Shown in pieces: positions 3,296 through 19,129 of a stretch of 22,561 bases of DNA. Position 1 is the first letter of the stretch; every line of letters begins with the position of its first letter. Where the stretch lies: positions 1 through 22,561 of the forward strand of contig NW_008246212.1 of NCBI RefSeq assembly GCF_000281045.1, given 5' to 3'. The notes beneath the pieces are model-generated. The model worked only from the letters and a program-made list of their open reading frames with translations. It did not search any database and was not told the DNA's origin. Source of the stretch: Saprolegnia diclina VS20. Taxonomy: Eukaryota; Oomycota; Saprolegniomycetes; Saprolegniales; Saprolegniaceae. The translations under genes were made by a program, and so were the position numbers.

Positions 3296-6042
3296 TCACA
3301 TTCGGCGCAGCGTCTGGATCGGTGGACTCTCGAGGCTAAACTCGGTCCAGCCGCGATGTCGAACCCACGCGCGAACGCGAAAACAGTACCACGAGAGCGC
3401 CGAGAGGTTGGGAACGACGCAAGTTCGGCTCGGGAGCCTGTCGTCCACGATCGTCCACGTTCCTTTCGTGGCCGCACTGGTGCCAAGCTGGTCAAGTGGA
3501 CTATACGTTGGGAGCGGGCACATGTGCACCTCAAAGTGCTCTTTCATATCGTGGCGGCTATTCACGTCGGCTTGGTCCATCCACGTAAGCGTTAGCGAGT
3601 ACGATGTCTTGGCGACGGCAACTGGTGGCGTTGGCGGCAAGAAAGCTATGGCATTTACCAAATAGTTACTTTGGTACCACAAAGCGGATGTACCGTGCGT
3701 CCAAAAGGCCAGTGATGGTGCTCCATACTCACCCCATCCGAGGGCATTCCTCGCTCGGATGCGAAAACTATAGGGTGTGCCCACGGCAAGACCCGGAACG
3801 TGCACGGACGAAAACTCAACCGGAATCGAGTTCGATACGGTGATCCAGGGAGCCGTCGGGTCCGTTTCGGCACCCGAAAGCAGATTTGACGCGACGCGCT
3901 CGCGCATCGCTTGACGCTGAAGTTCGTACGTGAGCACAACAAAGCCATTGCAGCGTGGCGCGGACCACGCTACATCCATTGTTGTCTGAGATCGTGCGAG
4001 CATCCTGACATCAACGGGGCCCTCGGGTGCAGCACCTATGGGCTAGTGAGTGAAGGGAATTTCAGGTTCAAGCCACCCTCAGTGTAAAAGACCGGGCTGA
4101 TTGCGCAGTTGGTGAGGGTCTCCCATGAAGGTTCACCAAGTGGTACAAAAGCATAATGCGGGCGCACTTGAAATTGGAATGCAGTGGCGGGCACAAGGCC
4201 TTGTACGCAGTAGCGCTGATCGTGCACGGTAGACGGCACCAAGAGCCAGTCTTGCGCGCCAACGAACCGGTACGAAAGCTCGTACATGTCAATGTCATAT
4301 GGCGAGTAGGGCTTGGGCCATATCAATGTCAGCGATGTTGACGACCTCTCAACCATTTTAGGTGCGTCTAGGAAAAGTCTCGTCTCGTCGATGAGAATGA
4401 AAAAGCATACCGTTCGTGCAAATCCCATCACTTACGTCGCCAGCGTCCGACCACCCCAACGCATTGGCTGCCTTCAAGCGAAAAAAATAGACGCAACCTG
4501 GGGTGAGCCCTGATGCAACGAACTCGCGGAACCCGTCGCGTTTAAGAGCTAGCTTCGCTGGGTCGCCAACCCAGAGCTGCGTCCACGCGCCGTCTACCGC
4601 TTTGACGTCCATGAGAGACATCTATACGAACTCGGTATTTGGTGATGACTCGATGTGAGATAGAAGTACGAAAGCATCTGTCGTGCTAAGATTGATAGAG
4701 CCCGTGCGTTGAACGAGCACAACGAGTCTCTGGATCTCCAATCCATTGGGTTCTGGCACAGGTAGTAGCATCTACGTTTCAATATCTTGTGTCAGTCCAC
4801 TTGCAGGAAACGGGGCGTTGACTTTGATGAATTTGTCGGCTACACTTGTCACACGCGGGGCTTTAGGAGCTGTAGGTACGGACGCTGCGAGACATTGATC
4901 AATACATTAATTCGCGGGTGACATCGTGCCGTACGTGCAGTCGTCGCGAAGAGGTTGGAACTGTCACGGCTCCAACCAGCAGCGTTGCCCGCTTGCACTG
5001 TAATGACGTATAACGTGGCGGGCACAAGGTTTCTCACGACCAAGTTGGCCTTGCTGCAGACAATGGTGCTCGGCTCCACCGCGGTCTCGAGTTTCCACTG
5101 AACTCTATACTGAAGGATGGGCGCAGGCGCGGTGGCTGATCGTCGGGTTGACGCGACACCGGGCTCCCAGCTCAAGTGCAAGTTTGAAGGCTCGCTCAAG
5201 ACACATGCCAATCGCGCTGGCGGATACGGGACCCCTAGTATGTGTCATTTTCATCTACTCTAAGCTCAGTATGCTTCTGTGTGAACCCACCTTGAAGCAT
5301 TGTTTGGATCGCCTCGGAAGGAAACTCTTGAGCGACATCGTACGGCAGCATTCGATCCTATACATGTATGAGACTAAGTTGATGCATACCATCCCAATCA
5401 AGCACACCTGGCCGGGAATTTTCGCGGCGTCGTGACGTAAGAGCTGCTCAACACACGCCTGGTTGCCAAACATGACGGCAGTGTGCAATGGGGTCGATTG
5501 TGTCTGCAAAGAAATGATAAAGGCACAAGAATGACGCACTACCGTTGCCAGGGCGTTTACGTCGGCACCTGCGCGGATGAGACGCGCCATGATACGGCCA
5601 TCAGGTTGATTGGCAGCTGCATGCATTGCAGTGTATCCCAGTACCTATATCTCGGACGTCAAGGTTTTGCCAACGGTGTGCACGGCCAAACTGCTATCCA
5701 ATATACCGTGTGGGTTCGGTCAATAGGAATCCCAGCGCGAACAAAGAGATCGACACGGCTCTCGAGACCTTCACCCGCAGACTCGATGAAGTCGTCGACA
5801 AGCCATTGCAGTGAAATAGGGTCATGCATGCGTTTGTGAATGCCCTCAAGTGTTAGAGGCAGCCTCTTGGTCTTCTCGAGTGGCGTTAGCGCCTTGTTTT
5901 GCTTGCGCTACACGCTGCGGTCAAGGAGACAAAGAGAAGGTTGGTATACCCGCTGCATGACCTTGCGCGGTTGGCGCGCAGCCTTTTCGTCCAGCACGAT
6001 CTGACGCAGCATGTGCGTCGCCGACTTCGAGTTGGTGTCCAT
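3296..6042 (-). CDS. Ankyrin repeat plus five-FN3 domain protein, 12 exons
   Basis: Model complement(join(3296..3645, 3694..4035, 4077..4383, 4436..4621, 4670..4727, 4776..4884, 4935..5234, 5291..5357, 5408..5503, 5543..5644, 5707..5892, 5950..6042)) gives 731 aa with no internal stop. An in-frame TGA lies just upstream of the ATG at 6042. Residues about 75-181 are ankyrin repeats, with GYTAMHAAA, RAGADVNA, STPLHTAV and LPYDVAQEF as signatures. Five fibronectin type III domains follow, at about 183-281, 283-399, 400-501, 502-615 and 616-731. Their marks are the repeated strand motif (YVITVQAGNAAGW, YFFRLKAANALGW, YSFRIRARNALGW) and conserved Trp residues. No signal peptide or membrane segment is visible, so it is probably an intracellular scaffold. 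Animal FANK1 and ANKFN1 combine the same modules, but the function here is unknown. The 48-nt intron 4728-4775 uses a GAG acceptor and is the least certain junction. Confidence 0.85.
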
Positions 6043-6215
6043 GAAATTCCAAAAATACCTTCGTCCTCGAGCGTCCCTTCACCGACGTTGGAGCAAGCTT
6101 GGAACCAATGATGACGTAATCGAGAGATCCGCAACAGGACGCCCGAGCACTGATTGGCTTATTTCGTCTGGTAACATTGGTAACATTGGCGGGGCTCAGT
6201 TTCGAATCGGCGGTC
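6043..6215. promoter_or_regulatory. Divergent promoter between the ankyrin-FN3 gene and DHFR-TS
   Basis: This 173-bp spacer separates two head-to-head start codons. On the plus strand it contains three ATTGG pentamers (inverted CCAAT boxes) at 6153-6157, 6176-6180 and 6185-6189. The last two lie in a perfect 9-bp tandem repeat, gtaacattg x2 (6171-6188). The third runs into ATTGGCGGGG (6185-6194), which resembles an E2F/DP site. CCAAT boxes are normally bound by NF-Y. E2F control would fit an S-phase gene such as DHFR-TS. These are sequence matches only. Confidence 0.5.
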
Positions 6216-7809
<1,594 letters not shown>

Positions 7810-10336: not shown

Positions 10337-11554
10337 ATGGACGGGACGACGGAGAAGCGGTGGCTGACCGACGGCGAGAAGGACGGCGAGCATATTGCGA
10401 TCGTGAGCTACCCGCGCTCAGGCAACTCGCTTATGCGTGGTCTTCTCGAGAGTGTCACAGGCATCTACACGGGCTGCGACACCCAGCCCGACCGCAGCCT
10501 GAGTCTCGAGCTCCAAAACTATGGCATGAAGGGCGAGGTACCAACAAAACTGTGTTCGCCTGCGTCAACTCAACGTGCAAACACAGGGAGTCGTCGACGA
10601 GTCTGTTTGGTTCGTCAAGTCTCATTACCCTGAACGATCTGGCTACAAGCCCGTGGCCGTGCACAAGGCGATTCTTGTCGTGCGCAACCCGTGGGATGCA
10701 ATCAACTCGTACTTCAACATGACGTTGACCAACAGCCACAACAAGAGCGTTCACGACTCACAGTACGATCGCTTCGCGGAGCGCTGGGACAAGATGATCC
10801 AGAACGAAATCCAAGTTTGGATCCGGTTTCACCAGTATTGGACAACACGCGTCGACATACCGATCATGGTCGTGCGCTACGAAGACCTCATGGTCAACCG
10901 GTAGGTTACACAGAGGCGTGACAAAGTATTTCCTCGGCTCATAACGTCGTGATGTACGCTAGGCGAGAGTCGCTACACCGAGTGTGTAAATTCATTCTTG
11001 GAAAGGAGCCGAAGGACTCGCTTTGGGTACGATGCGACTTGCGGTGTTGATGACCGAAGGACATGACGAAATTGATGCTCAAAATCGTATAGGATACAGA
11101 GTGGGGTGAGCGAATCACATCCGTCATCGCGGCAGACGACGCAGGGCCGTACAAGCCACGCAGTGGCAAAATCAGCGCGTCCTTCCGGCACTACTCGCCG
11201 ATCCAGTTCCAGGATGTTTTGACGACAGCGCGACCACTCCTACGCCAATTTGGCTACGACACAGAGACGCAGAATTTTCCCGAGACCATTCCCCTACCGA
11301 ACCGTCAGGTGAAGCCCGGCAAGAGTGACGCCAAGCCGCTCATTCTGTCGGCCGACGGCCTCGAGCTGCGCGGCCGTAACGACTCTTTCGGCCGGCTCTC
11401 GACGTGGTTTCGCAAAACGCTACTGGATCCAGTGGTTGCAAGCGATGGCACAGAGCTCAACATGGACGAGGTGCTCGCCGCTCGCGACCGGAAGCGCCAG
11501 AGAGGCGAAATGGACGTGCTATTGGCCAAAAAGGCTGAACATAAAGAATTGTAG
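10337..11554 (+). CDS. PAPS-dependent sulfotransferase family protein, 4 exons
   Basis: Model join(10337..10537, 10587..10900, 10963..11026, 11093..11554), 346 aa. It should transfer sulfate from PAPS to an unknown acceptor. The 5'-phosphosulfate-binding loop is VSYPRSGNSLMRGLLE (about 23-38), and the 3'-phosphate-binding segment is LVVRNPWDAINSYFN. FVKSHYPE and VVRYEDLMVN are further conserved family motifs. Organisation most resembles the WSC-domain-associated sulfotransferase group, but no WSC domain is present. The C-terminal 90 residues are charged and less conserved. There is no N-terminal signal peptide or membrane anchor, unlike Golgi carbohydrate sulfotransferases, so a cytosolic enzyme is likely. 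The last four residues are HKEL, a weak look-alike of an ER-retention tail, which has no meaning without a signal peptide. Introns are 49, 62 and 66 nt. Confidence 0.88.
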
Positions 11555-11717: not shown

Positions 11718-14465
11718 ATGGAAGGACAGCGGATCCGCAGCTTCTCGCTGGACGCCGACGAGCAGTCCCACGCGTACACGCCGTTCTTGCCTGTGAGCAC
11801 CGCGACCCCAAACCGTCTCGGCACATTCAACGTATGTACTATGACGCCCTCTCGACTAGTGACGTTGGGTAGGGTGTTTACGTGCCCTGCCTCCTCAACA
11901 TCATCGGCGTCATCTTGTTCCTGCGCCTCGGCTGGGCAATTGGCCAAGCGGGTGTACTCGGTATGCTTGGTATTTTTGTCATCGCTGAGGCGCAGGCTGT
12001 GCTCACCGTTCTTGCGGCGAGCGCGATTGCAAGCAACGGCAGCATGCGCGGTGGCGGCTCATACTATCTCATCAGGTTTTGTCGATCTAACTGGCAGGTG
12101 TGAAGGGACCTTACATGTATTTAGTCGATCGCTGGGGCCTGAATTTGGCGGCGCCATCGGGCTGCAATTCTACCTCTTGTATGCATCCGGCGTAGCCATG
12201 TATCTGGTCGGCCTCGCAGAAGAAGTACAACAAACGTGGCTTGTGCATGCTTCGTGGGAAAAGCATCACATCATCATTTCTGTCGCTGCCATTGCTCTGC
12301 TTTCGACAACTGCGATCGCTCTCCTCGGCGCGCATGCATTCGCCAAGGTTAATCAGTACCTCTTTGGCGTTCAGTTTGCCTGTATTGCCTATGGCGCGGT
12401 ACGATGCCTATATCGTTATCATCACTACTCACGATTGTGACGTGCTAGGTGGAGATTTGCCTCACAAAACCACATTCCTTGGCAAGCGGTGGGCGCGTCA
12501 CGGGTCCATCGATGAACACGATGCGGGACAATCTATATGCCAACTACACAAATGAGCGCAATGCTTGTGGGCTCGGTCAAACGTGCAACTTTGGCGCTGT
12601 CTTTGGTATTGTTCAAGCACAAAATCATGTCCCCATAACTAAAATGGCGACGCCACGTAGCTGTCGTCTTCCCGCTCGCCACTGGATTCATGGAAGGTCT
12701 CAACCTATCCGGTGACCTCAAACATCCAGGTACAGACAGACCTGTACATTTTACAGCTCAACCATAATGATCGTCGATGTAGGCAAAAGTATCCCTGTTG
12801 GCAGCTTGGCAGCAATTGGAACGGCGTGTGTCGTCTACGTCTCGCTCATTTTTCTCTTCGGGAGCTCGTTTCCTGGCGCGACGTTGCGGACAAACTATAC
12901 CTTTTTTCAAGAAGTGAGTGCCTCGCCGATTGTCGTCGTCACGGGGCTTCTCGTGTCATGCTACACGTCTGGGCTCGGTGCACTTTTTGGTGCCTCGCGT
13001 ATTCTCCAGGCAATCGCCCGGGACTCACTATTTCCTGGTTTTCCCATCTCCGCCGTGTCACATATAACGGAATGCACGTGCGTTAGGTATGCGCTGGCTC
13101 AAGCAAGGCTCGGCCGTCGGCGATGAGCCTCAAGCCGCAGTCCTCTGCACGACACTTCTCTCGTTTCTCTTTATTTTGATCGGCGACCTCGACGTGCTTG
13201 CTCCAATTTGCACGTCGTTTTTTTGCCTCGCGTACGCTGCAGTAAACTTTACGGCCTTTGCTTTGCAGATCTCTGGCGTTCCCAACTTCCGTCCGACATT
13301 TCGTGGCAGCGCGTGGCCGCTTTCCCTCGCGGGTGTCGCCTTGAACCTCGGAGTGATGGTCTATCTTAACGCGCTCTATGCGGCCGAAACGCTTCTCGTC
13401 CTGAGCGTCCTTTTTGGCTACCTCTACATTGTGTCGCCGTCGGTCGCCGTCGGCTGGGGCAGCCTCTCGCAAGCTCTCTTGTATCACCAGGTACGCAAGT
13501 ATTTGTTGCGGCTGGACAGCCGGAAAGACCACTGTAAGTACTGGCGCCCGTCGCTGCTCCATGTGCCCGCCAGTATGTCGGCGCACAGCGTCTTTTTTTG
13601 CAATTGGCTGAAGAAAGGCGGTCTCTATCTGGTCGGTGACATTGAATTTGGTGCTGTCACCATGTCTACCGTGGCGACAACCCGGAACAAGTACATGCAA
13701 TGGCTCGCGTACCTTGAGACGCACCACATCAAGGCAATTCCACGGGTACCTTGAACAAAATCGTTCACTTCTTATCGCTCTGGGAATAGGTGCTTGTCGC
13801 CCCGTCGTTGCGGGATGGATACCGCAGCCTTCTACAGCTTGGCGGTCTCGGCGGCATGGACGTCAACACACTTGTGTTGGACTGGACACTGGTACAAAAG
13901 CAGCACTCTGGCAAATTAATGAGCAACAGTGGCGTAGGGACCGGATCTCGCCGCAGTAATGTCAGATGCACTCGTCTTGCAGAAGAATGTGGTGGTCCTG
14001 CGCCATGGCGATCGACATTCGCTACTCAACGAAAAATCGCCGCGTGCCATGACGATCGACGTATGGCTCATGACGGACGATGCACTGCAGCACGTAACGC
14101 TTATGCTGCAACTGGCGCATGTGCTCAAGGCAGCCGCGCCGTGGAAGCGGGCGTCGATCCGCCTCCTGCGCGTCGGTGGTGATGACAGCCAACGGGCGCT
14201 TTTGGACCTTGCTGACGACTTGCGCATTGATGTCGGTCCCGAAAACGCGATCGTGCTGCCTCGCGGCCCCACGCAAGACTTACAGCACGTCATTCTTGCG
14301 CACTCGAGCAATGCGGGTCTTGTCTTGCTCGCGCTGCCCTCACAAGGGCTTGCGACGAGCATGGATGCAGTCCTCGGAACGATGGACGCTGTCACTGTCA
14401 ACCTGCCTCCTACGATGCTGGTTCACTGCGCCCAGGAAAATGGTGTCATAACGACGTGCATCTAG
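11718..14465 (+). CDS. SLC12-family cation-chloride cotransporter, 9 exons
   Basis: Model join(11718..11831, 11873..12075, 12125..12398, 12449..12605, 12661..12729, 12783..13037, 13087..13745, 13790..13891, 13938..14465), 786 aa. It moves chloride with K+ and/or Na+ across a membrane. The first transmembrane region reads [20 protein letters not shown], and [21 protein letters not shown] follows. [35 protein letters not shown] and [14 protein letters not shown] are further family signatures, with about twelve hydrophobic segments. A loop with four Cys residues lies before the MEGLNLSGD segment. The C-terminal cytoplasmic domain (about 555-786) keeps [19 protein letters not shown] and the LLALPSQGL segment. 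The short N-terminus (about 38 aa) and compact C-terminus make it smaller than the roughly 1000-1200 aa animal KCC/NKCC proteins. Sequence favours the SLC12 family over amino-acid transporters. I cannot separate KCC from NKCC-like ion choice. Introns are 41-55 nt, and all eight end in TAG. Confidence 0.93.
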
Positions 14466-14910: not shown

Positions 14911-15398
14911 GATTGATTCCCTGCCAACTCGACTCGTGGTTTGTTGTTTTTTATTTATCCGAACGTGTGGGTCAAAATCCATACTATTAATAGTACTTTT
15001 TCAGCTTCGATTATAATATAATCGAAGCACGAAGCTCGAGCAGTTATAGAAAAATATTATTTTTCTATAACTTTTAAAATATGTTGGGTCTCATGTATTT
15101 TAAACGTTTTGGAAAACATTATCGAAGTATTAATACATGCTCTCCTCGGGAAAAAATTCAAAATTAATTGTGCACACAATCAATTTTGAAAAGTGAAGCG
15201 AAATTGTCAAATAACGTTAGGACGACGTAGCCCAGTGCGTCGTTGCTGTGCGCAGTGGCTGATTCTAAAAATCGTTCTCGATCACGAGATATGCAGTAAA
15301 AATGGATTTGACCCTGTCGCACGGGTACGCTGAAAATATACATACCATACAAAACCTTTAGTACGCAGTGGCGTGAAGCTAAAAACGCGCTGGCTTGC
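14911..15398. repeat. AT-rich spacer with a dense palindrome cluster (14982-15190)
   Basis: No gene is supported here. The perfect palindromes or hairpins I can pair by eye are: 14982-14995 (14-bp palindrome), 15004-15028 (12-bp arms, 1-nt centre), 15043-15071 (13-bp arms, 3-nt loop), 15073-15104 (9-bp arms), 15106-15117 (5-bp arms) and 15127-15136 (10-bp palindrome). At 15157-15190 there are 15-bp arms with one mismatch and a 4-nt loop. They lie 5' of the small membrane protein gene and 3' of the PH-PX-WH2 gene, so they could be in a promoter, a 3' UTR or an inserted element. No flanking target-site duplication is evident. Confidence 0.8.
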
Positions 15399-17732
15399 TT
15401 AATCGTCCCAATCGGAGTCGTCATCGTCGGCGTCATCATACTGGGTCACGTTGAGGCGGCTTGCCATAGCATTCGCGATGCTGTCATGGATGCTTGGCGC
15501 TGTTGCGAGTGGTGGGCGTGGAGCTACGGGAATTGGCGTTGGGAGAGCGGCAACGGGACGCGATGATGGGGCAGCGTTGTTTACTGTGGGCGCGGGTGGT
15601 TGGTTGCCGTCGACGGACTTGAGATGGGCGCCCATTCGAATGGCAGCAAGAAGATCTCCGCGTCCAGCACCACCAAATGGGCTTGGACGGGGTTGTGTAG
15701 GCGAGGGTGCAGTCGATAGAGCATTGGGTGCCGATGCAAGGATCTCGCGGTGCGATGGCCGACGCTGCGGCGGTTGTGCCACTGGCAGCTCCGATCGCTG
15801 CGAGGCTGGCCGCGTTATCTTGGTCGCGTTAAAAACAGGCTCTGTTTCAACGGACACAATGGACACTTCGTCGTCGTCGTCCGAGCTTGCATCATCAAAG
15901 AGGTTGCGGCTTGACACCTTCGTCGCGCGCGTTGGAGCTTGGAAACTCGCAGTGGTCGCCGTAACAGTTACGACACCGGCGAGAAGGCTTGACGCCCACT
16001 CGGGTGGGAACGCGAACGTTGAATGGAAGGCAGTGTGCTGCACGAGGCCGGGCACCGCCAGGAGGCCTTGGAGATACTGCGTTATCTCAACTGCGCGCTT
16101 CTGCATCAAATCCGGTTTCGTTGGGTTCCGAAGCACATGCTTGGACGGAAACTTGGGTAATGTAGCACTGTGCGCCTTGAGTGTTTGGTGCATGGCTTCA
16201 AGCTCATGGAATGCAAGCCCGAGACGCCGGCACCATGTATGAAGACGAAACTCAAACGTGTAGATGGCCATGGTCTTCCCACCACGCGTCTCAACGGCGC
16301 TCGCTACGTACCCCACCGACAGAACGGCAGGGACGTTCGATGGTGCATGCTCGATGGCACGTGCAGCGGACATTTCCTCGTTCTCTTCATCGTCGCCTAC
16401 AAAGGTCGCGATTCAAAACAATTGGCGTCCAATGTGCTGGGTCGTACCAGAGACAGATTTAGTACCAACCGTGGGTACGATTTTGTGGGCTTTGATCGAT
16501 TGGCGAGAGACAAGCGCGTCGGTATCATCGTCGTGATCGTCGTCATCGTCGCTGCTGTCGAAGAGACCCTTGCGCTCCGGGTGAAGCTTGTTGGACGAGA
16601 GCGCGCGTGTCAACAGCTCCTTCCCCTCGGCGCTGAGCTGCGACTGCCGTGACCGCGACGGCCGCTCGCTATCGACGCTGTACTTGCGGTTGCGTTTGAT
16701 GGCATCGAGGGCTGCTGCCATCGGATTCGTCGGCCGCGACACGAAGTCTGTGGACGCCGGCGTTTGCTTCGGTGGCGGTGGAGGTGGCGGAACGAACCCG
16801 CCGCGTAACTTTGTTGTGACGACAACGTTTTCTTCAGAAACACCAGAGACAGACGCATCGTCATCATTGACGACCGAGTCTTGCGACGAAACGGACCCCG
16901 TGGAAGCGTCCCGGAGGGGCTTCGGGTCTTTCGTGGACACGAAATCTACAAGGCAATGTGTGAGATGAACGAAATAGCTGCCAACTAATGTACACTGGCC
17001 CGGTGGGGGGAGGTCAAATCTGAACTTCGACTTGCGGGGTACCGCGTCTGGAAGAAGCGGTGGCACGGTGGCGTCGAGTGACTTGCCGCCTGCCATCATT
17101 TCGAGGCGCCGACGTTGCGCCTCCTTCCCGACGCGCCCTTGCGCGACCTTCTTGTTGAGTCGTTTCTTACGCTCTCGCAAGAGCTTCTCCGTCTCTTCGT
17201 CGAGCGTGCCAAGACCGTCCTTGCGCTGCAGCGGCGTCATCTCTTCGATTTCCCGCTCGCGGTCGAGGAGCTCTTGTTTCTTCTGCGCTACCCACTGTCG
17301 CTTTCGCGCTTCTTCGCGGTCCTTGATCTCTTGCTCCTTCTCGTGCTGCTTGCGGATCTCGCGCTTCACTTTGCGTCGCTCGCGCTTAATCTCGTTCGCC
17401 GCCTCGGAGGTTGGGTCAAGAACGGCGATTAGTGCCCGGCACCAGCGCTCGAGGTCCAGCCGGTTTTCGGCCGCAACGTACAGCGAGCGCTTATCCTTGA
17501 GCTGGAGCTCCAGGCCGTAGGAGTCCAGTGGCAACACCCCGAGACCTTCCCACTGGCAAAAGCCACGGACCGAGTACGTTGTGGCACCAGCACCATGGCT
17601 GGCGGTGGACTCGGGCGCAAACATACGCAGCTGGGAGGACCAGGAAAGCTGACAGAACTGCACCTGGAGCACACCGGCGGCAGGCGGCAGCCATTGTAGG
17701 TACCCCTCGTGCACAGGCTGCTTCTTATCCAT
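15399..17732 (-). CDS. PH-coiled coil-PX-WH2-connector-acidic protein: predicted Arp2/3 activator, 3 exons
   Basis: Model complement(join(15399..16396, 16448..16945, 16994..17732)), 744 aa. Domains in order: PH (about 8-107, starting HEGYLQWLP and ending in the LERWCRALIAVL helix); a highly charged coiled coil (113-215); poly-Pro of seven (299-305); an acidic patch (377-387); PX (about 444-545, with CRRLGLAFHELEAMH, LPKFPSKH and the YLQGLLAVPGL helix); a proline-rich linker; WH2 (657-675, GRGDLLAAIRMGAHLKSVD); an amphipathic connector (714-729, SIHDSIANAMASRLNV); and an acidic end, DDADDDDSDWDD, with Trp742. The last three elements are a complete VCA module, which in WASP-family proteins binds actin monomer and Arp2/3. 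PH and PX would tether it to phosphoinositide membranes. The start is the first in-frame ATG. Both introns end in TTGTAG, and the 48-nt one keeps the frame open if retained. Arp2/3 activation is inferred. Confidence 0.85.
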
Positions 17733-18560
17733 CGTCGTCAGCGTAAGATGTGAAGGCAATTTCAGTCCGGATACGATGCGGAACTTACGTCAACACCGCA
17801 AATAGTGTTGCTTCTCGTTTGTTGTGATTTTGCGTCGAAAGCTCCGTGTTTTTTCCAATAGAGAGATTTTTCTAACAAGAATTCTACTTGCATTTCGACT
17901 TCCGTAAAAAAAGAGCCGGTTCGTGGAATGCTGGAAGTGGGTCGCGGTTTTTGTAAACGTGATATTTGACATGAGAGGTCATTGATGAGAGGTCGTACAT
18001 TTTTTAGTTATATTTAAAAGAAAAAGTGTGCATCCGATTTCGGGATCAAGGTCCGGATGCTGAATTGTTTGGTCTACATTTCAGGACTAGACCCCGCCGG
18101 AATGTCTCTTCCAAGTCTGATTTTAGAATTCTTGTTGTCAAAATCACTGTATTAGAGTGATTTTGCCGTGATGCGTGGATTGGATTGATAAAAATGCATC
18201 ATTTTGAGGGCGTTGAGCTGGGCGTTATGATTCCTCGTACAACTACAGAGGGCAATTTTTACGGGCGGCGATTTGGCAAAAACACACTTAAATAGTGTGC
18301 GGTCTCTAAATTATATTTTATTAGCCTGACCGTGGGGATTTGTAAATAGTGTTAGACCAAAACCAAAACTTTATGAGGAACGATGAACACTACATGTATG
18401 ATGCATCTCCAAAGGGGAGCTACATCGCTGCCAACTCCACGTGAGACTTACCTTCTATTGGGTACGGTGGCCGCAGTCAAGAGGCAAATTCCGTAAGGGA
18501 CTGGACGCTTACAAATGAGCATTTCTCGATGGACGTAAAAAGTAGGGAACGACAATGCGC
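17733..18560. other. Non-coding AT-rich flank with isolated hairpins
   Basis: This is the 5' flank of the PH-PX-WH2 gene and beyond. No open frame has coding character. Two short inverted repeats stand out: 18283-18299 (cacact, 5-nt loop, agtgtg) and 18139-18165. No CCAATCAG octamer is seen close to the ATG. Confidence 0.5.
18139..18165. repeat. 10-bp inverted repeat with 7-nt loop
   Basis: caaaatcact and agtgattttg are perfect reverse complements separated by gtattag. The site is in non-coding sequence with no nearby gene end to explain it as a terminator. Confidence 0.6.
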
Positions 18561-19050
18561 AAGCCAAGCGAGTCGCGACGACCAAGGAGGAGGTGCGTCA
18601 AAGAAAGAACAGAAAACGCCCAAAAACAAACCGAGAACCACAAAAACAAACTGATCGTAAAAATAAGGCACACACGGACCCACACGCATTGCCAGAAAAT
18701 AAAACAATCCTAAAACAATCGAAGAGCGTAGACACCAAAGCCCACACCCGGGACCAGGGAACCAACCCCCAGTGACAAAGACCCAAAAGAACCCTGCGAT
18801 ACATCGAGCCCAAACCCGAATGACCAACGAAGACCACCCTAACGGCGCGTAAACCTGACGCAACACAAAAAAAACGCGAAAATGCCACAACAAAACCAAG
18901 CCACCTCGATACACACCCAGCACATAATAAAACGAGTACAAACCCCGAGAGAGACCCAAAAAAACCGAGCCGAGCGCCAGGGCGCCAAGCTACACCAAGG
19001 CGAGCACGACAACAGCGCACGAACGACAGCCAGAAGACACGAGCGAGCAA
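18561..19050. other. Strongly T-depleted, A/C-rich tract without coding character
   Basis: On the plus strand, T is rare for more than 400 bp. By hand I count 26 T in the 420 bases 18601-19020, about 6 percent, while A and C dominate. Because stop codons need T on one strand and A on the other, long open frames arise on both strands by composition alone. The minus-strand frames give implausibly hydrophobic, aromatic-rich sequences. I see no tandem period, no terminal repeats and no known RNA. It may be a non-coding RNA template, a skewed element or a mutational patch. Confidence 0.65.
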
Positions 19051-19129
19051 TTGACCCGTTGGTCATGAGCAAGATTATCCTTGAGACCCCAAAAGGGTAG
19101 TTCTCTCTGCTATGCTATGCATATTTCTT

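What the first reader, a model, noticed from the sequence alone, without database searches (positions are those of the whole stretch)
15399..17732. PH-PX-VCA protein: a WASP-like Arp2/3 activator with an unusual pair of lipid-binding domains
Seen: one spliced frame joins a PH domain, a long charged coiled coil, poly-proline, a PX domain, a WH2 motif, an amphipathic connector helix and an acidic tail with Trp742. Known: WH2-connector-acidic (VCA) is the output module of WASP, WAVE, WASH and WHAMM-type proteins, whose targeting domains are WH1/GBD, SHD, WAHD or similar. I know of no named WASP-family class with both PH and PX. Inference: a phosphoinositide-targeted actin nucleation factor, perhaps for endosomes or the hyphal tip. 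The splice that links the two halves (intron 16397-16447, phase 1) is essential to the claim.
Basis: partly seen in the sequence, partly recalled or inferred. Interest (0 to 1): 0.85.

Follow-up and report, generated by a model that had tools for sequence, protein, structure and literature searches.

The report
Oomycete PH-PX-VCA actin nucleation activator
This water-mould gene encodes a probable activator of branched actin growth that joins a WASP-type "on switch" to two folded domains not listed together in the named families of such activators, and relatives occur in many oomycetes.

Summary
A three-exon minus-strand gene (17732-15399) encodes 744 aa, identical to SDRG_16672 of Saprolegnia diclina. 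AlphaFold plus fold comparison supports a PH-fold domain (Pfam finds none) and a PX domain; poly-proline, WH2, connector helix and an acidic DWDD end are present. Of 31 homologs retrieved, 28 carry oomycete names and 3 are unnamed; 24 of the 26 that hold WH2 plus connector end in an acidic Trp tail.

Most likely it is an Arp2/3 nucleation-promoting factor; the genome has Arp2/3 subunits. One survey gives Phytophthora WASH only; another lists neither WASP nor SCAR for P. ramorum. PH+PX+VCA matches none of the named WASP-family classes.

Correction: the lipid inference is weak. The PX arginine required for PI3P is Ser/Thr/Ala in 22 of 22 aligned rows, while a secondary-site His is invariant. The "coiled coil" is a highly charged helix with poor heptads. 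The most conserved short motif, R(K/R)GLFD plus acidic residues, resembles retromer-binding motifs of FAM21. Sequence similarity of the connector/acidic part to WASP and WAVE is weak on its own. Nothing is tested biochemically.

The parts
15399..17732 (-). whole gene, exons 17732-16994, 16945-16448, 16396-15399; 744 aa, = SDRG_16672
16946..16993 (-). intron 1, 48 nt, GT-AG, in frame
   Evidence: its removal gives the annotated protein P0001
16397..16447 (-). intron 2, 51 nt, GT-AG, phase 1; if retained, stop at residue 424
17412..17720 (-). PH-fold domain, residues 5-107
17241..17405 (-). long charged helix, residues 110-164, then conserved MTPLxRxDGLGTLDEET block to about residue 217
16770..16790 (-). 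poly-proline, residues 299-305
16551..16574 (-). LF-acidic motif 1, RKGLFDSS (371-378) followed by an acidic run; R371, G373, L374, F375, D376, S378 invariant in 25 of 25 rows of A3
16005..16337 (-). PX domain, residues 433-543; A474 stands for the PI3P arginine, F475, K498, R513 kept, His482 invariant in 22 aligned rows
15891..15905 (-). LF-acidic motif 2, NLFDD (577-581)
15603..15674 (-). WH2, residues 654-677 (V)
15450..15494 (-). connector amphipathic helix, residues 714-728 (C)
   Evidence: AF2 helix 715-728
15402..15449 (-). acidic tail, residues 729-744, with Trp742 (A)

Best explanation
It is an oomycete class I (WASP-type) nucleation-promoting factor. The WH2 binds an actin monomer, the connector helix and Trp-containing acidic tail bind Arp2/3, and together they start a branch (inferred from the conserved VCA). 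Poly-proline would feed profilin-actin or bind SH3 proteins (inferred). The PH and PX domains and the LF-acidic motifs place it and perhaps hold it inactive on a membrane or complex (inferred). PX is predicted not to read PI3P; it either uses the secondary site for multiply phosphorylated lipids, as SNX25 does, or binds protein (inferred). Shown: gene structure, folds as models, motif conservation, taxonomic spread among the homologs retrieved, presence of Arp2/3, WASH and VPS35 genes in the genome. Not shown: any binding or activity.
For: Gene and splice. PH and PX folds. VCA: the tail profile matches an N-WASP construct with three WH2 stretches at 1.6e-11, full N-WASP over a range from WH2 to the acidic tail (6uhc_H, residues 399-491; E 0.031 with A4, 0.0014 with A2; ranges seen, not the alignment), and WAVE1 3p8c_D at 0.0033 for the whole chain. 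26 of 31 retrieved homologs hold WH2+C, and 24 of those 26 end in an acidic Trp tail (23 by pattern plus P0004 by eye). Identity between Saprolegniales and the other rows: 0.65 WH2, 0.46 C, 0.38 A, against 0.10-0.22 in seven linker stretches. Arp2/3 genes ARPC4 (3.2e-48) and ARPC2 (2.5e-24) in the same genome.
Against: No biochemistry. WH2 is just under Pfam's cut-off in S. diclina. Similarity of the connector to known proteins is weak: the WAVE1 connector stretch scores 8.0 bits, i-Evalue 54, and single WH2 stretches of the N-WASP construct score i-Evalue 0.01-0.43; a plain tail query found WH2 stretches only, among chance-like hits. The V-C spacer is 24-72 residues by pattern, against about 13 in WAVE1 counted the same way from the alignment, so cooperation of V and C is not assured. 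PI3P arginine absent. Five of 31 homologs lack VCA, apparently short or partial models of 405-685 aa.
Confidence: 0.8

Rival explanations
1. Actin-monomer or profilin-actin binder (verprolin-like) in which the acidic tail does something other than bind Arp2/3.
For: Long V-C spacer; weak sequence match of the connector. A second S. diclina gene, SDRG_15003, has PX, poly-Pro and WH2 but ends right after WH2, so PX-WH2 without CA exists in these organisms.
Against: Connector pattern and terminal acidic-Trp end kept in 24 of 26 homologs that hold WH2+C; the matched range in full N-WASP runs to its acidic tail.
Confidence: 0.12
2. Retromer-coupled endosomal activator: the LF-acidic motifs bind VPS35, making it a one-chain parallel to FAM21+WASH. 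(A reading of the address; compatible with the best explanation.)
For: R(K/R)GLFD in 25 of 25 rows of A3 and in 28 of all 31 homologs, followed by 4 or more D/E within 12 residues in 24 of the 25 (P0006 has serines); a second LF-acidic site after PX. FAM21 LFa motifs are Leu-Phe-acidic and bind VPS35 (PMC7618989, PMC4110399 passages). VPS35 gene present (1.1e-99).
Against: Short motifs; mostly two against 21 in FAM21; no VPS29-binding PL motif was looked for; how often such motifs occur by chance in this proteome was not measured; PX lacks the PI3P arginine.
Confidence: 0.2
3. Plasma-membrane or cortical activator: the PX secondary site reads PI(4,5)P2-like lipids and drives cortical actin such as oomycete plaques or the tip cap. 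(Also a reading of the address.)
For: A474/H482/K494 have the same spacing (0, +8, +20) as R714/H722/K734 of SNX25, whose secondary site binds multiply phosphorylated lipids (PMC6449406 passages; register of A474); H482 is kept in 22 and K494 in 21 of 22 rows; SNX25 PX is rank 5 of the fold matches. Plaques are described as unique to oomycetes with unknown composition (PMC5306229 passages).
Against: Few basic residues around the secondary site; equal spacing assumes no insertion; no location data.
Confidence: 0.3
4. The N-terminal PH-fold domain is a diverged WH1 (WH1/EVH1 domains share the PH fold, recalled), so the protein is a remodelled WASP that gained PX.
For: N-terminal position of a PH-like fold, poly-Pro and VCA as in WASP (layout).
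Against: The N-terminal rows of the 50 shown by VIA are PH domains; UniRef calls homolog P0027 a PH protein; no GBD hit. WH1 chains were not compared directly.
Confidence: 0.08
5. Two neighbouring genes wrongly joined (PH-helix protein and PX-VCA protein).
For: The join falls in a poorly conserved linker.
Against: The 744-aa protein equals the deposited annotation, and orthologs carry all blocks in one chain.
Confidence: 0.02

Closest known systems
WASP / N-WASP
   Same: poly-Pro, WH2, connector and acidic tail
   Different: no WH1 or GBD hit in the protein; none in the genome for WH1, but that control was silent; PH fold and PX instead; long V-C spacer
SCAR/WAVE
   Same: connector region resembles WAVE1 'SRRIAVEYSDSEDD' by eye, 8.0 bits; the genome keeps CYFIP (2.2e-58)
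   Different: SCAR homology domain not looked for by profile; NCKAP1 not detected (control silent); SCAR listed as not found in P. ramorum
WASH and its FAM21 partner
   Same: VCA output; LF-acidic motifs recall FAM21 LFa
   Different: a separate WASH gene exists in this genome (WAHD 2.2e-11); no WAHD match here
WAML (Entamoeba IMD-VCA) and WAWH
   Same: precedent for VCA fused to another membrane-binding N-terminus
   Different: IMD or GBD instead of PH/PX
PXK/MONaKA and SNX9 (both recalled; listing of one search did not help)
   Same: PX linked to WH2 (PXK) or to N-WASP activation (SNX9)
   Different: kinase-like or BAR domains, no own CA tail (recalled)
SDRG_15003 family (Saprolegniales)
   Same: PX, poly-Pro, WH2; possible PH
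   Different: no CA tail; 4 members found; its AF2 model failed (pLDDT 35)

Membership tests
WASP superfamily (class I NPF) in the broad sense | C-terminal WH2 - connector - acidic module | tested here: met
   WH2 by profile, connector and acidic part by pattern, helix and conservation
WASP superfamily (class I NPF) in the broad sense | proline-rich region before VCA | tested here: met
   residues 299-305; between-clade identity 0.89 for 298-305; but PX lies between it and WH2
WASP superfamily (class I NPF) in the broad sense | activates Arp2/3 | not testable with these tools
   needs pyrene-actin assay
WASP | WH1 and GBD | tested here: inconclusive
   no Pfam hit to either, but Pfam also missed the PH fold; WH1 shares that fold (recalled) and was not compared directly
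WASH | WAHD domain | tested here: not met
   no match; the WAHD gene is elsewhere
SCAR/WAVE | N-terminal SCAR homology domain | tested here: inconclusive
   N-terminus models as PH fold; no SHD profile was run
PH domain | strand barrel capped by a C-terminal helix | tested here: met
   (model only; DSSP counts six strands, one of them long, then helix 91-105)
PH domain binding phosphoinositides | basic motif in beta1-beta2 | tested here: inconclusive
   not conserved in the block, by eye; motif recalled
PX domain | PX fold and PxxPxK loop | tested here: met
   LPKFPSK 492-498
PI3P-binding PX | Arg-Tyr pair, loop Lys, helix-2 Arg all present | tested here: not met
   Arg position S 10, T 9, A 3 of 22 rows; Y/F 22, K 21 and R 1, helix Arg 22 (P0027, P0029 gapped and P0031 misaligned, left out); rule from PMC6449406 passages

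The most novel reading that the evidence does not exclude
Oomycetes replaced the SCAR protein they lost with this PH-PX protein: its WAVE-like connector is held in check by the retained CYFIP, so a lipid- or retromer-addressed activator plugs into a remnant WAVE complex, alongside WASH, as the second and cortical branch of Arp2/3 control in a whole class of organisms.
Probability: 0.1. Interest if true: 0.85.

Novelty: new variant of a known kind. Interest (0 to 1): 0.62.

Why it matters
Oomycetes build unusual actin structures (long-lived plaques of unknown composition, appressorial asters; PMC5306229 passages), yet the survey seen gives Phytophthora only WASH. A second, conserved, probable Arp2/3 activator with a new targeting front end gives a concrete gene to test, and would show VCA re-wired to membrane or trafficking domains once more in evolution.

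Tried and rejected
PI3P targeting by PX: set aside after the arginine check. Canonical coiled coil: weak. Mis-joined genes: rejected. A close paralog: the only strong genome match to the 744-aa protein is itself; the next has E 0.0079. Homologs outside oomycetes: none named among 19 and 25 hits, but only the 7,988 and 7,993 candidates sharing most words were scored, so distant ones could be missed. PH in SDRG_15003: AF2 model useless, weak PH_MRCK hit E 0.19; left open. WH1 and NCKAP1 absence: the tool's controls were silent, so not proof. Strumpellin (PF10266): not completed. One of 25 rows had a COMM-domain hit at 0.0086 and one a nepovirus polyprotein hit at 1.1e-4; taken as noise, not looked into. 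The 2012 FAM21 repeat paper is not held, so other papers were used.

Full report
1. The gene. On the minus strand, 17732-15399 splices over two short GT-AG introns (16993-16946, 48 nt; 16447-16397, 51 nt, phase 1) to 744 codons. The product is identical to SDRG_16672 of Saprolegnia diclina VS20 (P0001). Retaining the second would stop translation at residue 424. At the sensitivity used the gene is single in the genome: next match E 0.0079.

2. Relatives. Two searches of 5.8 billion proteins gave 19 and 25 hits, 31 distinct proteins. 28 of 31 carry an oomycete name: Saprolegnia, Achlya, Thraustotheca, Aphanomyces, Pythium, Globisporangium, Phytophthora, Peronospora, Plasmopara, Peronosclerospora and Albugo; three are unnamed. 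No named hit lies outside oomycetes, with the caveat that only 7,988 and 7,993 candidates were scored.

4. The output module. The tail profile (10 sequences) finds a three-WH2 N-WASP construct (1.6e-11), WAVE1 (3p8c, 0.0033 for the chain: WH2 13.1 bits, connector 8.0 bits with i-Evalue 54) and N-WASP over residues 399-491 (6uhc, 0.031; 0.0014 with the full-length profile). So WH2 is secure, while connector and acidic tail rest on layout, predicted helix and conservation. 26 of 31 proteins contain WH2 and connector by pattern, and 24 of these end in an acidic Trp tail (23 by pattern, P0004 by eye); the two exceptions are Aphanomyces astaci models, P0007 named partial and P0008 running on past the connector. 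The V-C spacer is 24-72 residues against about 13 in WAVE1 counted likewise from the alignment. This longer spacer is a departure from WAVE1.

5. The targeting end. Chandra et al. 2019 (abstract and passages) state that the human PX domains that bind PI3P have an Arg-Tyr pair, a loop Lys and a helix-2 Arg, and that those that do not bind it lack at least one. Aligned through SGK3, the Arg is A474, and it is S, T or A (10, 9, 3) in the 22 aligned rows of A3 (P0027 and P0029 are gapped there; P0031 reads Q in a misaligned stretch; these three were left out). Y/F475 and the helix Arg513 are kept in 22, Lys498 in 21 with one Arg. His482 is invariant in the 22, K494 is K in 21 and N in one. Their spacing from A474 equals R714-H722-K734 of SNX25, whose secondary site binds multiply phosphorylated lipids; this assumes no insertion and uses the paper's residue numbers. 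The PH beta1-beta2 loop has no conserved basic motif (by eye; motif recalled). Lipid targeting is possible but probably not of the simple PI3P kind.

6. R(K/R)GLFD is the family's most conserved short motif: six of the nine columns invariant over the 25 rows of A3 fall in or next to it. It occurs in 28 of 31 homologs (not in P0007, P0008, P0030), with an acidic run after it in 24 of the 25 rows of A3. A second LF-acidic site follows PX in most near-full-length members. FAM21 reaches retromer through Leu-Phe-acidic motifs (passages), and VPS35 is encoded here. This suggests, but does not show, a trafficking link; chance frequency was not measured.

7. Cellular setting. The genome has ARPC4 and ARPC2, a WASH gene, CYFIP and VPS35. 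WH1 and NCKAP1 were not found, but the controls were silent too. [quoted passage not shown] Fritz-Laylin 2017 lists n.f. for P. ramorum in the SCAR and WASP columns (one passage). A 2010 survey lists PH and WH2 among domains associated with FYVE and PX (one passage). Searches listed no paper on this protein; others showed 20 of 225, 20 of 40 and 6 of 25 papers, so a mention inside an unlisted text could be missed.

8. Verdict. A real, conserved, probably Arp2/3-activating protein with a new front end: a new variant of a known kind. The C-terminal mechanism is well supported by layout and conservation; the address label is open, and PX-PI3P is unlikely.

Noticed in passing
L023 3085-4479 (G000:C82); protein P0032 = SDRG_15003: Second S. 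diclina gene with PX (5e-6), poly-Pro and WH2 (2e-5) and a possible PH, ending right after WH2 with no CA tail; 7-exon model equals the deposited 368 aa; 4 Saprolegniales members.
   Followed up: partly
L016 (G000:C33, about 362080-362601): Formin-like text (LPRYFEIVLALGNVLNEG, recognised from memory, in a neighbouring frame) with about seven short ALLAAIR WH2-like repeats.
   Followed up: no
L012 (G000:C29, 144968): WW-like segment (by eye) followed by WH2, the best WH2 match in the genome (36.2 bits), no CA tail seen.
   Followed up: no
G000:C32 592864-595348: CYFIP/Sra1 retained (2.2e-58) although SCAR was listed as not found in an oomycete and NCKAP1 was not detected here, with a silent control.
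   Followed up: partly
window 18500-19060: About 500 bp very poor in T on the + strand (AT skew 0.60-0.76 at GC about 0.5), only its own place found in the genome, no explanation.
   Followed up: partly
window 15004-15190: Three near-perfect AT-rich palindromes (arms 12-16 nt, loops 1-2 nt) just 3' of the gene.
   Followed up: no
window 16680-16730 (-), protein residues 319-335: Conserved helix NPMAAALDAIKRNR / NAFAASLAAIRRNR resembles the helical half of WH2 and sits after poly-Pro; may be a degenerate second actin site.
   Followed up: no
window 6177-6875 (+), 10575-10904 (+), 12767-13754 (+), 3296-4003 (-): Neighbours: DHFR-thymidylate synthase, sulfotransferase, amino acid permease, fibronectin type III protein; four other frames of the nine scanned gave no Pfam family. 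No evident link to actin.
   Followed up: no
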